Shown: positions 5,203-10,528 of the stretch, one piece after another | How positions within the stretch are numbered: the first letter of the stretch is position 1 | Layout of the letters: each line of letters starts with the position of its first letter | Source of the DNA: an uncultured Dorea sp. | GTDB lineage: Bacteria > Bacillota > Clostridia > Lachnospirales > Lachnospiraceae | Assembly (NCBI GenBank): GCA_947388185.1 | Contig: CANDQP010000011.1 | Span: 1 to 45,354, forward strand | Direction of reading: 5' to 3' | Length of the DNA: 45,354 bases | Notes under the pieces: generated by a model | What the model saw: only the letters and a program-made list of their open reading frames with translations | Databases searched by the model: none | Told to the model about the DNA's origin: nothing | Program-made: the position numbers and the translations under genes

Positions 5203-6774
5203 CTACAGGTATTCTATCCTACAAGAGTGTTTTTTATTCTTTTTGTCATAGTTGATTCCAACCAGAAGAATTTTACCTCCAAAATCTTCCACAGCCTGTA
5301 TATATTGTTTGTTTCTGATCTGTGCAATGGCGCCTTCTGATGAATTATTCCATTTCAATTCTATAAGCAACAGCGGTTTATCAGATCCTCTCTTGGGGAG
5401 GAACACTATATCTGCATAGCCTTGTCCGCTCGGAAGTTCTTGAAATTCCAGATAATCTTTCACCCGGCTGATATAAGCCAGCTGAATAACTGCGCGCAGA
5501 GACTGCTCATTGTTATAGAATAAGGGCGAGGAATATTCCGTGTGGATCTTATCCAACAGTCTGGCCACCGTTTCTTCATCCATATGCAATGTAGCATCCA
5601 ATAACTGCTCTGATTGACGGATTACTTGTATCATTTCAGGGCTGTCTGCATTTTTTATGGCACGCAGGAATTCTTCCGTTACTTCTTGATTAGGGATAAA
5701 TACGCTTTCAGCAGATACATCATAAGTCAGATACCCCAGATGTACCAGCAGTGTAAGCACATCATCCCTACTGTGGAAAGTAGTCATATCATTTTGAAAG
5801 GTATTGGTATCTATTTTACATTTCATGCCACCGAGCATGGATAAGATCATGTCCTTGAGGCCGTTAAAATTCATAGTGATATAGGTTCTCAGGGATTCGT
5901 ATGTCTCTGTCTGTGCCCAGTAGCTTCCGAAGCGTTTACGGTTTATAGCATCTAATACTGATTTGGGGCTGTATATGTGAAGGTGATCGCCCAGAATATA
6001 GCCATCGTACCAATGCTGCAACTCATGGAAATCCAGACTGGATTCTTCGCACAGCCTGCGGACTTCATCCTCTGTAAAACCGACATATTCTTCTAACGGC
6101 GAGGAATCCACCATGGTAAATTCATAGAAATCGCTTAGTGCGGACTGATTGCCATATTTCTTAATGGGCAGAATTCCTGTCATATAAGCGGCCTCAATCA
6201 TCTTATCGGTCAGGCTGCTTCGGAAAAGCCCCCGCAAAAGCTGGACGTATTCTTCCTGCAGGGATTTATCTTCCTTCGCCTCCCGGAACAGGGCGTCCCA
6301 TTCATCGATGATGACGATAAACTTCGAATCAGACCTGGCAGTAATATCAGAGAGAGCAACCGGCAGCGAATGTTCTGATATTTCGACACGGTCCGGATAA
6401 ATCTCCCGTAACTCTTTGATGACAGCTTTTTGTAGGTTTTTAACGGTATCTTTCATGTTGTCTGCAGTTGAGATGAACCATGTAATATCCAGATACAGTA
6501 CGTTGTACTGGTTCAAATGTAGTTGATAAGAAGACTTTTTGGCAATCTTCATATTATGAAAAAGCTCTTCTGAATCACAGCTCTTATCATAATAGGCACA
6601 TAACATCTGGGCGGCGAAGGATTTCCCGAATCGTCTCGGCCGGTTGACACAGGTAAGCTTTTGCTTCGTTCCCAGAGTATGATTAATATAATCGATCAGC
6701 CCTGTCTTGTCGATGTATTCTCCTTTTCGTATGGATTGAAACCCGTCATTCCCAGGATTCAGATACTTTCCCAT
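5203..6774 (-). CDS. AAA-ATPase-like / PD-(D/E)XK nuclease superfamily protein (DUF1703 type)
   Basis: 523 aa. The N-terminal part matches the AAA-ATPase_like family: a P-loop variant NRPRRFGKS at about residues 44-52 and a Walker B-like VIIDEWDALF near 153-162. The C-terminal 70 residues show a PD-(D/E)XK pattern, GYADIVF (Asp 455) followed by LIELKW (Glu 472, Lys 474). The family is abundant and multicopy in gut Firmicutes and Bacteroidetes; its biological role is not established. The start is supported by AGGGAGGT upstream of the ATG. It stands alone on the minus strand, convergent with hemW, with its own promoter, and fits a mobile accessory gene. Confidence 0.85.
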   Translation of the reverse strand: MGKYLNPGNDGFQSIRKGEYIDKTGLIDYINHTLGTKQKLTCVNRPRRFGKSFAAQMLCAYYDKSCDSEELFHNMKIAKKSSYQLHLNQYNVLYLDITWFISTADNMKDTVKNLQKAVIKELREIYPDRVEISEHSLPVALSDITARSDSKFIVIIDEWDALFREAKEDKSLQEEYVQLLRGLFRSSLTDKMIEAAYMTGILPIKKYGNQSALSDFYEFTMVDSSPLEEYVGFTEDEVRRLCEESSLDFHELQHWYDGYILGDHLHIYSPKSVLDAINRKRFGSYWAQTETYESLRTYITMNFNGLKDMILSMLGGMKCKIDTNTFQNDMTTFHSRDDVLTLLVHLGYLTYDVSAESVFIPNQEVTEEFLRAIKNADSPEMIQVIRQSEQLLDATLHMDEETVARLLDKIHTEYSSPLFYNNEQSLRAVIQLAYISRVKDYLEFQELPSGQGYADIVFLPKRGSDKPLLLIELKWNNSSEGAIAQIRNKQYIQAVEDFGGKILLVGINYDKKNKKHSCRIEYL

Positions 6775-6835
6775 GAACAGACCTCCCTATCGATGTGTAA
6801 GCATGAGCACATGTCATTTTGATGCCTTGCATTAT

Positions 6836-6864
6836 ATTATAAATGCTTTTTGTAATTTTTACAA
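6836..6864 (-). promoter_or_regulatory. promoter of the minus-strand AAA-ATPase gene
   Basis: On the minus strand TTGTAA is followed by a 17-nt spacer and TATAAT, about 60 nt upstream of the start codon. A short TGTAA/TTACA inverted repeat (6851-6863) overlaps the -35 region. Confidence 0.6.
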
Positions 6865-6886
6865 TGTACCGGGGTGTAAATAACAT

Positions 6887-6912
6887 ATATTCCAACCATG
6901 CAGTTGGAATAT
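6887..6912. promoter_or_regulatory. 26-bp perfect palindrome, operator-like
   Basis: ATATTCCAAC and GTTGGAATAT form perfect 10-bp arms around CATGCA. It sits between the divergent ATPase and esterase promoters, about 60 bp upstream of the esterase -10. There is no U-tract, so a protein-binding site (dimeric regulator) is more likely than a terminator. No regulator gene lies next to it. Confidence 0.55.
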
Positions 6913-6957
6913 TTTGAACAAATGCGGGAATTGTACTAAAACATATTGTATCCAGCC

Positions 6958-6966
6958 TGTTATAAT
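6958..6966 (+). promoter_or_regulatory. extended -10 promoter of the esterase gene
   Basis: TGTTATAAT is a full extended -10 element. No good -35 is seen at the normal spacing, which would fit a promoter that needs an activator, possibly at the palindrome upstream. Confidence 0.55.
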
Positions 6967-7023
6967 AGGATCAGGAACTTTTTAACCGGGAAATATAAAC
7001 AAAATTAAGAAAGGAAGAAAAAG

Positions 7024-8046
7024 ATGGATGCAAAATATTTAGTCCGCGATGATGCGGAAAAATGGGCGAATCCTGAACTGGCTGATGTATTTGAGATGGG
7101 GCTTCCCATTTCCTTTGAGGAATGGTTGGACGAGCCGGGAACGAATGCGGAGAAAAGGGCGAAATACAGTATGCCCCTTGAGGAGACCCACAATGAGCGG
7201 ACAGAGACGTACGAAGTGCCGGGATGCCCGGAGGAACCGGACGCGCCTGCAGTAAGGATTCTTGTCACTTACCCGGCAAATAGAAAACGCAAGATGCCGT
7301 GCGTGATCGGGATTGCAGGAGGCGGATTGATCCTCTCATTTGCGGCGATCATGGCACCGGAGAAGCTTGCAGACGATCTGGGGGCGATCGTGGTATCCTT
7401 CAACTACAGATGTCTGTTTGATGATTCCAAATATCCGGAAGCATTAAACGACTGTCACGCGGTGTACAAATATGTGTTGGATCACGCCAAGGATCTAGGT
7501 GTTGATGAGAAGAGAGTGCTCCTCTATGGCGTCAGTTCCGGCGGGCACCTCGCATTGGCGCTCTGTCACCGATTGAAGAGGCATAACTATCATCCGCGTG
7601 GATGTATCGCGATCGGACCTGTTGCGGATAACCGACTGATCTACCCTTCCAGCGTAAGAAGCGGCAATACATGGAACAGCCAGGCGCTGTACCGGACCGG
7701 CAAAGAATGGCTGGGCGATCAGGGGAACGATGCATTTCTGTCGCCGGAAGCATTCCCGAATCATGCGACGGTGAAGGAGTGTGAAGGGCTTGCACCGACA
7801 ATTATCTATACTTATGAGACGGATGTCTGCCTGGATCCAAGCCTGATGTATGCATCCAAACTGGTGCAGGCCGGTGTGTTCACACAGTTGTATCTGTTTG
7901 GAGGACAGAATCATATCTGTAACTGTAATGCTTATCTGAATACGCCGGACAGCGAGCAGGCGGAAGAATACCGTGATATGTTGAAACGTGATGTGGATAT
8001 GCTGGTAAAGAATGATCTTCGGAGATTATGGCAGCAGGAAGAATAA
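7024..8046 (+). CDS. alpha/beta hydrolase (hormone-sensitive-lipase-like esterase)
   Basis: 340 aa, cytoplasmic, no signal peptide. The fold is suggested by an oxyanion segment AGGG (residues 98-101, in place of the usual HGGG), a nucleophile elbow GVSSG (Ser 171), an acid in YETDVCLDPS (Asp 267 or 271) and a final histidine in GGQNHIC (His 297). These fit the HSL-type carboxylesterases that cleave short esters; the natural substrate is unknown. The ribosome binding site is AAGGAAG. It is a single-gene transcription unit, with an extended -10 promoter upstream and a strong terminator downstream. It could also be a xylan or feruloyl esterase relative. Confidence 0.8.
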   Translation: MDAKYLVRDDAEKWANPELADVFEMGLPISFEEWLDEPGTNAEKRAKYSMPLEETHNERTETYEVPGCPEEPDAPAVRILVTYPANRKRKMPCVIGIAGGGLILSFAAIMAPEKLADDLGAIVVSFNYRCLFDDSKYPEALNDCHAVYKYVLDHAKDLGVDEKRVLLYGVSSGGHLALALCHRLKRHNYHPRGCIAIGPVADNRLIYPSSVRSGNTWNSQALYRTGKEWLGDQGNDAFLSPEAFPNHATVKECEGLAPTIIYTYETDVCLDPSLMYASKLVQAGVFTQLYLFGGQNHICNCNAYLNTPDSEQAEEYRDMLKRDVDMLVKNDLRRLWQQEE

Positions 8047-8056
8047 TCATCATAAG

Positions 8057-8105
8057 ATAAAAAGGGGGACAGGACAAATGCGGAGGATTTGCCCTGTCCC
8101 TTTTT
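8057..8105 (+). terminator. rho-independent terminator after the esterase
   Basis: An A-rich then GGGGGACAGG arm pairs with CCTGTCCCTTTTT, with an inner CAAAT/ATTTG extension. The A-tract and T-tract make it potentially bidirectional. Confidence 0.85.
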
Positions 8106-8139
8106 ATGGCGAAGTATCCCAATCAGAGGTGAACGATAC

Positions 8140-8200: not shown

Positions 8201-9595
8201 ATGCCGGCAGGAGGGAATATGAGAAGAAGAGTAATCATTGAGGACTTTGGGAAGATTGAACATGTCGAATTAGAAATGAAACCAATGATGATGTTTGTGG
8301 GAGATAATAATAGCGGGAAGAGTTATCTGATGAACCTTCTATGGGGATTTTCTTCGGAAAGCAGTGCGCTGTTGACTGATCTGACGGAGGACATATTGAA
8401 CTCGGATTTGTACAAAGAATGCGAGCAGTATATGATGGAGAAGATAGTTGAGGGAGAGATAGAAGAAATATTATCTGCGAAATGGTTTATAAAGTTCCTA
8501 AAGTTACTGAACTTATGTATTGAACATAATAAAGATCATTTTGTCTCAGAGATATTTAATAAGGAGATGCATATAGGAAAATTGAAATTGGATATGGAGG
8601 ATGAAGAGAAAATTGAAATTATAGTAGAAAACAGATCGATATATTTTGAGGTGACGAACAGGGGGAGGACGAATAGAGAAAAACCGGATTATATTATTAC
8701 TGAAAAAACATTGTGGATTAGATTGTTCAGATATTATCAGATGGGAATGCAGATTGAGGGGAAGGATGCATTACAGAGGAAAAGGTATGTTAAGTTCGTG
8801 TTAAATATGCTGTTGAAATATTGGACAGAAATATCTGTCCAAGAAGGTGATCCGGTATTTCTTCCATCTTCCCGGACCGGGTTCGTTTTGTCTAAGAATC
8901 TGATCATTAATCATATGTATGAGAATAGTTTTAACAGAGAATCAGATCTTGTGCCGTCGTATTTTACGAAGCCTGTAATCAGTTTTTTGAAATTATTGAA
9001 CAGTGTGGGGGAAATAGAGGGAAAGAACCAGGAATTATGCAAATTGGCAGAGTTTATTGAGCAGTCCGTTCTACATGGTCAGGTTGAAAGACAGGATACG
9101 ATCTCACGGGCGTTTCTATATAAACCAGATAATATGAATGATTCTATTCAGATGTATCTTGCTTCAGCAGTGGTTACGGAGATTACCCCATTATACCTGC
9201 TGTGCAAATATCAGCATAGGATATCGCAGATGTTTATAGAGGAGCCGGAGATGTGTCTTCATCCGCAATTACAGACAGCGGTCGCAAAGGTTCTGGTTAG
9301 AATGTGCAGTATGGGAATACCGGTGATCATGACTACACACAGTGATATTATCATCCAGTATATCAACAATATGCTCCGTGTAAATAATAGTGATAAAAAG
9401 CAGGAGCTTATGGAGAAGTTTCAGATTGAAGGACAGGATCTGTTGGAAGAGGATCAAGTCGGGGTATATCAGTTTGCTTGTCAGGGAGAAGGGAATTCCA
9501 AAATTGAAGAACTGAAATCCGGAGCGGTGGGATTTGAGACAACAACTTTCAGCAATGCATTCGAAGAGATGCTGGAACTGACATATGATATATAA
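8201..9595 (+). CDS. ABC-type AAA family ATPase (AAA_21-like), first gene of a two-gene module
   Basis: 464 aa. Walker A GDNNSGKS is at residues 34-41, right after a short beta-rich start (VIIEDFGKIEHVEL) typical of SMC/OLD-like ATPases. Walker B is MFIEEPE near 344-350, followed by the H-loop VIMTTHSD near 375. The signature region (NDSIQMYLASA) is degenerate. No TOPRIM or other effector domain follows, so it is not a canonical OLD/GajA protein. Base composition is noticeably AT-rich, with many ATA, TTA and AAT codons, unlike its neighbours. An alternative start is the ATG at 8219, which has AGGAGGG close upstream; the 8201 start has GAGGGTGA. It overlaps or abuts the next gene, suggesting they act together. 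Confidence 0.82.
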   Translation: MPAGGNMRRRVIIEDFGKIEHVELEMKPMMMFVGDNNSGKSYLMNLLWGFSSESSALLTDLTEDILNSDLYKECEQYMMEKIVEGEIEEILSAKWFIKFLKLLNLCIEHNKDHFVSEIFNKEMHIGKLKLDMEDEEKIEIIVENRSIYFEVTNRGRTNREKPDYIITEKTLWIRLFRYYQMGMQIEGKDALQRKRYVKFVLNMLLKYWTEISVQEGDPVFLPSSRTGFVLSKNLIINHMYENSFNRESDLVPSYFTKPVISFLKLLNSVGEIEGKNQELCKLAEFIEQSVLHGQVERQDTISRAFLYKPDNMNDSIQMYLASAVVTEITPLYLLCKYQHRISQMFIEEPEMCLHPQLQTAVAKVLVRMCSMGIPVIMTTHSDIIIQYINNMLRVNNSDKKQELMEKFQIEGQDLLEEDQVGVYQFACQGEGNSKIEELKSGAVGFETTTFSNAFEEMLELTYDI

Positions 9596-9629
9596 CGAAG
9601 GAAAACGTGCAGCAGGGAGGTGCTTGCAG

Positions 9630-10253
9630 ATGATTCCCGAATATTTGAGGCAGAATCTGGACTTGTTCAGAGAAGATGAGTATACGGTTGTCATAGATAA
9701 AGATGAAGAGATTCATATCTTGGAGGCAGAGGCAGAAGGCGAGGCGGACCTGGAAAGTTATTTTGAGGAAGATGCAGTGATCTTCCATGTTCCGGAGAAG
9801 AGAACCTTGCCTTATCTGGATGCGGAGAAGAAGGCCTGTCAATGTGCAGATAAATTCATATTCATCAAGAATAGCGTAAATGCTGGATGGCAGTTACATA
9901 TTCTGGAATTTAAGAAAAGTATCAAGTACGATAAATGGAAGAAGATCAGGAATCAATTCAAATATGGGATTATGAATGCAAGGGCATTGGCTGCATTCTT
10001 GAATATAGAGATTGATGAGATTATATTGGAGACGGCATACCGAAATGACTGGAATCCCCGCAGTGCGCTGCAGACACCTACGATGATGCGGGCGGCAAAT
10101 TCTGCGGCAGAGGTGAAAGCATATGAAGAGTGGCGGGGAGATTGTGTTTGGTTGGAATTAGATTCGGCGGAAAGAAGCTTTCGCCATGATAAGATTAAGT
10201 TGGACGAGTCGGGAAAGGGGATAAAAGTATATAGGAAAGTCAGGGAAAGGTAA
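9630..10253 (+). CDS. putative PD-(D/E)XK-like nuclease partner, second gene of the module
   Basis: 207 aa from the ATG at 9630, chosen because GGGAGG lies 9 nt upstream; the ORF track start at 9585 overlaps the ATPase gene and has no clear ribosome binding site. I do not recognise a named family. The centre holds CADKF (Asp 74), then HILEFKKS (Glu 93, Lys 95) and a helix IRNQF (Gln 109), the spacing expected of a PD-(D/E)XK nuclease core. The N-terminal third is very acidic (EAEAEGEADLE). There is no signal peptide or membrane segment. It follows the ATPase by 34 nt. The nuclease reading is inference from three motif residues. Confidence 0.65.
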   Translation: MIPEYLRQNLDLFREDEYTVVIDKDEEIHILEAEAEGEADLESYFEEDAVIFHVPEKRTLPYLDAEKKACQCADKFIFIKNSVNAGWQLHILEFKKSIKYDKWKKIRNQFKYGIMNARALAAFLNIEIDEIILETAYRNDWNPRSALQTPTMMRAANSAAEVKAYEEWRGDCVWLELDSAERSFRHDKIKLDESGKGIKVYRKVRER

Positions 10254-10254
10254 T
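10231..10254 (+). repeat. imperfect direct repeat, copy 1 (end of nuclease-like gene)
   Basis: ATAGGAAAGTCAGGGAAAGG here resembles ATAAGGAAGGTCAGAGAAG at 10431-10449. The two copies flank the group II intron remnant and both can encode RKVRE. This could reflect duplication at insertion or chance. Confidence 0.4.
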
Positions 10255-10319
10255 AAATCCGGAGGAAAACACTGACGGTATGTGTTGCATGCCATGAGGC
10301 TATCCATAACGGGCCAAGT

Positions 10320-10430
10320 CCATTAGCTGTAGACTGAGGGAAAGCCGTATGCGCTGTAAGGTGCAAGTACGGTTGGGGAAGGAGTAGGCTCTGCGGAGCC
10401 TGCTTACTTCATGGTATGGTCCTACGAAAC
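10320..10430 (+). mobile_element. 3' end of a group II intron (domains V and VI), no reverse transcriptase
   Basis: AAGCCGTAT at 10342-10350 begins a domain V-like hairpin: the catalytic AGC triad, a lower stem GCCGTA/TACGGT, a two-nt AG bulge and an upper stem closed by a GTAA (GNRA) tetraloop. Total length is about 33-34 nt, as in bacterial group II introns. A domain VI-like hairpin follows, GTAGGCTC/GAGCCTGC around TGCG, with an unpaired A at 10406 before CTTCAT, giving a 3' end near 10412. An alternative pairing of GTAGG with CCTAC puts the end near 10430. No domain I and no RT/maturase ORF are visible, so it is a remnant or a trans-dependent derivative. Confidence 0.65.
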
Positions 10431-10454
10431 ATAAGGAAGGTCAGAGAAGTAAAA
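10431..10454 (+). repeat. imperfect direct repeat, copy 2 (after intron remnant)
   Basis: Degenerate copy of the sequence at 10231-10254. It starts where one of the two possible intron 3' ends falls. Confidence 0.4.
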
Positions 10455-10490
10455 ATGGGGAAAACTTCTGATAGAAGCAATGATATAATA

Positions 10491-10513
10491 GGGGGGAACA
10501 GATTCCCCCCCCC
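10491..10513 (-). terminator. terminator of the chromate-transporter operon
   Basis: GGGGGGAA and TTCCCCCC pair around CAGA; read on the minus strand the hairpin is followed by TATTATATCATT. The run of nine Cs is part of the stem. Confidence 0.65.
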
Positions 10514-10528
10514 GATATATGGAGATGA

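What the first reader, a model, noticed from the sequence alone, without database searches (positions are those of the whole stretch)
10320..10430. Group II intron 3' end without a reverse transcriptase, just downstream of the ATPase/nuclease module
A domain V-like hairpin with AGC triad, GNRA (GTAA) loop and 2-nt bulge is followed by a domain VI-like hairpin with a bulged A near CTTCAT. No domain I or maturase is visible, and only 66 nt separate it from the preceding stop codon. It may be a decayed insertion or a trans-acting-dependent derivative, and it marks the segment as mobile-element territory.
Basis: partly seen in the sequence, partly recalled or inferred. Interest (0 to 1): 0.6.

Follow-up and report, generated by a model that had tools for sequence, protein, structure and literature searches.

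The report
Leftover tail of group II intron
This is the last 180 bases or so of an ordinary self-splicing, self-copying genetic element (a group II intron), left behind after a deletion removed the rest together with most of the nuclease gene it probably sat in; it is real but decayed and almost certainly inactive.

Summary
Rfam's group II intron model hits window 10340-10412 (56.3 bits, cut-off 40). D5 carries the AGC triad, a GUAA loop and a 2-nt bulge; D6 has a bulged A at 10406; the 3' end is ...CTTCAT at 10412. A full-length relative was found in a Lachnospiraceae MAG (L067, 5605-8126): RT + maturase + HNH protein, inserted in a PD-(D/E)XK/AAA-ATPase gene between the codons for ELKV and WRGD. 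It aligns to the window at 86-87% over 10233-10412. Past the 3' end, the window carries the decayed 3' tail of a gene of the same PD-(D/E)XK family (stop at 10486). Upstream, homology of the preceding 222-aa ORF to congeners stops at 10230; its last codons are intron-derived. Best reading: an intron-bearing PD-(D/E)XK gene lay between the ATPase module and the chromate transporter, and a deletion removed its 5' exon and about 2.3 kb of intron. The assembly holds no other D5 and no other trace of this maturase, so a trans-helped intron is not supported. This is an ordinary truncated group II intron.

The parts
10233..10412 (+). 3'-terminal remnant of a group II intron (about the last 7% of a 2.5-kb intron)
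   Evidence: 86-87% identity to L067 7937/7952-8128; 91% ungapped over 10287-10414
10257..10337 (+). last 26 codons plus stop of the intron-encoded protein (second half of the HNH motif, IRRKTLTVCVACHEAIHNGPSPLAVD*); frame broken upstream by small deletions
   Evidence: tblastn 80% over 25 aa, E 9.6e-8; AI2M-like_HNH PF21368 in the relative
10342..10375 (+). domain V; AGC triad 10343-10345, GUAA loop 10356-10359, bulge 10366-10367; outermost pair A/G broken
   Evidence: RF00029 hit; fold; alignment
10378..10410 (+). domain VI with bulged (branch-point-like) A at 10406
   Evidence: RF00029 hit; fold
10412..10412 (+). last base of the intron (..CTTCAT|GG..)
   Evidence: homology to L067 ends at 10414; joining L067 at this boundary restores the host reading frame ELKV|WRGDAYH
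10413..10488 (+). decayed 3' exon: 3' end of a PD-(D/E)XK_9/AAA-ATPase-type gene (stop TAA 10486-10488), with an internal deletion of roughly 90 nt
   Evidence: 10449-10487 local score 46 against L090 vs null mean 17.8, max 32 of 3987; anchored whole-segment test
9585..10253 (+). 222-aa ORF of the ATPase module; its last ~7 codons (YRKVRER) are intron-derived after the fusion
   Evidence: homology to congeners G683/G684 stops at 10230; their own ends read KVFSSSEME* and KVFKYNY*

Best explanation
It is an inert remnant. A group II intron with a LtrA-like RT/maturase/HNH protein had inserted, sense strand, into a PD-(D/E)XK_9/AAA-ATPase gene lying between the ATPase + 222-aa module and the chromate transporter genes, at the ELKV|WRG position seen in the intact relative. 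Later a deletion ran from the last codons of the 222-aa ORF (10230) into the end of the intron protein gene (about 10233). It removed the 5' exon and about 2.3 kb of intron, and left the protein's last codons, D5, D6 and a shrunken 3' exon. Without D1 (exon binding, 5' splice site) the remnant cannot splice or move. Shown: D5/D6, 3' boundary, HNH tail, break of ORF homology at 10230, 3'-end tail of the host gene family. Inferred: the order of events and that a single deletion did it.
For: Rfam hit. Full-length relative L067 with RVT_1, Intron_maturas2 and AI2M-like HNH domains and D5-D6 at 8054-8126, whose splice-out restores IVELKV-WRGDAYH..VEAVV*. Host-gene tail after the 3' end in the window. 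Congener G683, 92-97% identical around the locus, carries a decayed gene of that same family directly before the chromate genes; G679 has module, then PD-(D/E)XK-type gene, then chromate genes; G684 has module and chromate genes about 90 nt apart; G688 has neither module nor intron. No other intron part in window or genome.
Against: No congener with the intact intron-bearing gene at this exact place was found, so the deletion is inferred. The first 36 nt of the supposed 3' exon match the family only weakly, and a profile search of the whole window does not single the region out. The window is a whole MAG contig, so a collapse or misjoin at 10230 is not fully excluded.
Confidence: 0.85

Rival explanations
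1. A 5'-truncated retrotransposition: target-primed reverse transcription began at the intron's 3' end, stopped after about 180 nt, and the cDNA end was joined to the target.
For: A fragment with an intact 3' end and a missing 5' part is what early stopping of reverse transcription would give (general knowledge of retroelements).
Against: The upstream neighbour would then be the 5' exon of the gene whose 3' exon follows. It is instead the end of an unrelated ORF, so a second deletion would be needed. The sequence has also decayed: 10 nt lost in the protein remnant.
Confidence: 0.1
2. A trans-splicing or trans-helped group II intron piece: D5-D6 assemble with D1-D4 RNA and a maturase encoded elsewhere and still splice.
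For: D5-D6 fold well; intron pieces joining in trans are known in principle (a Tn5-based screen made functional tripartite introns, title and abstract of PMC3410883).
Against: Only one D5 and no other trace of this intron's protein in the assembly; outermost D5 pair broken; the 3' exon is itself a degenerate gene end. The assembly is a 91.6%-complete draft, so absence is not absolute.
Confidence: 0.02
3. The remnant has been kept as a cis-acting RNA, for example a 3'-end stabiliser or terminator for the ATPase-module transcript.
For: It is a very stable double hairpin directly after the module's last stop codon; such a role has been suggested, without proof, for another intron fragment, FRE652 (PMC5894124).
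Against: Congeners with the same module lack it and have other sequence there; no conservation can be shown because it occurs once.
Confidence: 0.03

Closest known systems
Group II intron of a Lachnospiraceae MAG, CATLCV010000064.1 (L064/L067, intron 5605-8126)
   Same: 86-87% identical over 10233-10412; same protein C-terminus, D5 loop, D6 and 3' boundary; followed by the same family of gene end
   Different: full length (2522 nt) with D1-D4 and RT/maturase/HNH gene (itself frameshifted near 6757); intact 3' exon; begins TTGCG where GTGCG is the consensus
Lactococcus LtrA-type (ML-class) introns, PDB 5g2x
   Same: the relative's protein has LtrA as by far its best solved match (254.8 bits, E 1.3e-74; next 46.8) and an HNH end
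   Different: the window keeps only 26 residues of the protein; the RNA subgroup cannot be assigned from D5-D6 alone
Rhizobial introns on plasmids (L003, L004)
   Same: D5-D6 79-88% identical
   Different: intron protein of another lineage; the apparent NPEEN-coding match upstream is out of frame and coincidental

Membership tests
Group II intron | Domain V with catalytic triad, tetraloop and 2-nt bulge | tested here: met
   RF00029 56.3 bits against cut-off 40; fold; first pair broken
Group II intron | Domain VI with bulged A near the 3' end | tested here: met
   A10406, 6 nt before the last intron base
Group II intron | 3' end AY at an exon junction | tested here: met
   ..CAT|GG; joining the relative there restores its host frame
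Group II intron | Domains I-III and 5' end GUGYG | tested here: not met
   only positions 2305-2479 of the 2479-nt query L067 5648-8126 align at significance in the window; therefore a fragment, not a complete member
Group II intron | Intron-encoded RT/maturase | tested here: not met
   only the last 26 codons remain; none elsewhere in the assembly
ML (LtrA-like, IIA) class | protein phylogeny and IIA-type RNA structure | tested here: inconclusive
   relative's protein is closest to LtrA among solved structures; RNA subgroup and tree not tested
Group II intron | Splicing and mobility | not testable with these tools
   needs RNA

The most novel reading that the evidence does not exclude
The D5-D6 remnant has been co-opted as a cis-acting 3' RNA element of the ATPase (defence-like) module, and the module's second protein uses an intron-derived C-terminal tail.
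Probability: 0.03. Interest if true: 0.45.

Novelty: new member of a known kind. Interest (0 to 1): 0.12.

Why it matters
Mostly as annotation. It explains an isolated D5/D6 hit, corrects the end of the 222-aa ORF, and shows a worked case of how a group II intron is lost from its 5' side by deletion with a neighbouring gene. Truncated copies are the majority of group II introns in bacteria (PMC4028801), so it is not surprising. One mildly interesting side point: the relative inserts right after the catalytic-looking ExK motif of a gene family that has many copies in this genus.

Tried and rejected
First link to rhizobial introns through a shared AATCCGGAGGAAAA word (NPEEN codons): rejected once the Lachnospiraceae intron showed another reading frame. 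A strict D5 pattern found nothing in genome or viral collections; a looser one found the key relative. DNA searches of 299 family and 391 class genomes with the fragment found only the window itself. The C-terminal part of the rhizobial protein gave only two short, marginal matches in 391 Clostridia genomes (E about 3-5e-4, with internal stops). Search of viral contigs with the relative's protein confirmed no relative. I considered that the ATPase + 222-aa genes might be cargo inside D4 of one big intron: rejected, because no D1-D3 sequence is found in the window and the module occurs in congeners without the intron. A short direct repeat at 10233 and 10433 was judged chance: the first copy is intron protein, the second lies in the host-gene tail. 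HNH introns of congener G679 sit in other sites than the PD-(D/E)XK gene.

Full report
Observation. Rfam's group II intron D5-D6 model hits 10340-10412 on the + strand, full length, 56.3 bits against a cut-off of 40, and it is the only Rfam hit in the window. The stretch folds into two hairpins with z = -6.4. D5 has the AGC triad (10343-10345), GUAA loop (10356-10359) and 2-nt bulge (10366-10367). D6 has a bulged A at 10406, and the sequence ends CTTCAT at 10412.

Relatives. BLAST of the fragment against plasmids gave rhizobial introns with similar D5-D6 only. A D5 pattern in the genome collection brought in a Lachnospiraceae MAG contig (L064) that aligns without gaps to 10287-10414 at 91%. 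The stretch upstream of it (L067) contains the whole intron. Its protein has RVT_1, Intron_maturas2 and AI2M-like HNH domains, with LtrA as by far the best solved match, and carries a frameshift near 6757. The intron runs 5605-8126: removing it joins IVELKV to WRGDAYHTRGEQQLLDYL..VEAVV*, the end of a PD-(D/E)XK/AAA-ATPase-type gene. This fixes the 3' boundary, and hence window 10412. The 5' end reads TTGCGCCC where congener introns read GTGCGCCC.

What the window keeps. The alignment to L067 covers window 10233-10412 (86%, with 10 nt lost in the protein part). The last 26 codons of the intron protein, IRRKTLTVCVACHEAIHNGPSPLAVD*, are readable at 10257-10337 (80% over 25 aa, E 9.6e-8). No other part of the intron is in the window. 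The assembly (3.6 Mb, 238 contigs, 91.6% complete) has no other D5, no GIIM maturase and no other stretch of this protein.

Left junction. Homology of the module (464-aa ATPase and 222-aa ORF) to congeners G683 (93.6%) and G684 ends at 10230, 23 nt before the ORF's end. The congeners' own ends, KVFSSSEME* and KVFKYNY*, are replaced in the window by KVYRKVRER*, encoded by the intron remnant.

Right junction. After 10412 the DNA should be a 3' exon. Window 10449-10487 matches the 3' end of a PD-(D/E)XK_9 gene of a congener (L090) with local score 46, against a null mean of 17.8 and maximum of 32 in 3987 random window segments. The whole 78-nt segment, anchored at GG, beats 4000 of 4000 GG-anchored window segments for the best member, but 16 of 4000 simple shuffles score as high. 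The tail is therefore solid and the beginning weak. A profile search over the whole window does not single out the region. This gene family has about 10 copies in the own genome and up to 25 in congeners, and L067's intron sits in a member of it.

Locus comparison. Between the hydrolase (7024-8046) and the chromate transporter genes (from 10529), congeners differ: G688 has neither module nor intron; G684 has the module about 90 nt from the chromate genes; G679 has the module, then a PD-(D/E)XK-type gene, then the chromate genes; G683 has a decayed gene of the host family directly before the chromate genes. None of these loci has a D5. An ancestor with the module, then an intron-bearing PD-(D/E)XK gene, then the chromate genes, followed by a deletion, explains the window with the fewest steps. 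This order of events is inferred.

Function. Without D1 the remnant lacks exon-binding sites and a 5' splice site; with the outermost D5 pair broken, the protein gone and the 3' exon degenerate, it should neither splice nor move. The trans-helped reading finds no partner. Among 397 sampled family genomes searched with the whole relative, only the window matched this 3' end over its full length; other genomes matched mostly RT-coding or 5' parts, as in full introns. So nothing suggests a conserved stand-alone RNA.

Known context. [quoted passage not shown] The finding is ordinary; its value is in correct annotation of 10230-10490.

Noticed in passing
8201-10253: 464-aa AAA ATPase (PADLOC PD-T4-4_A, E 3.2e-40; OLD/AriA/GajA-like weaker) overlapping a 222-aa ORF with no family hit; a two-gene candidate defence module present in some congeners and absent in others.
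   Followed up: partly
10254-10527 and the syntenic slot in congeners (L051-L060): The slot just upstream of the chromate transporter pair is a variable site in the genus: module, PD-(D/E)XK-type genes, other genes or almost nothing.
   Followed up: partly
G000, G262, G679-G688: The AAA-ATPase/PD-(D/E)XK_9 gene family is strongly multiplied in this genus, up to 25 listed copies in a genome, with several truncated copies.
   Followed up: no
L067 5605-8126: The relative's intron interrupts the gene directly after its catalytic-looking ELK motif, and its own protein gene is frameshifted near 6757.
   Followed up: partly
G679:C2 (L068, L075, L081, L085): At least six identical-scoring copies of another HNH-type group II intron (49% protein identity) in one congener, inserted in similar sequence contexts unlike the PD-(D/E)XK site.
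   Followed up: partly
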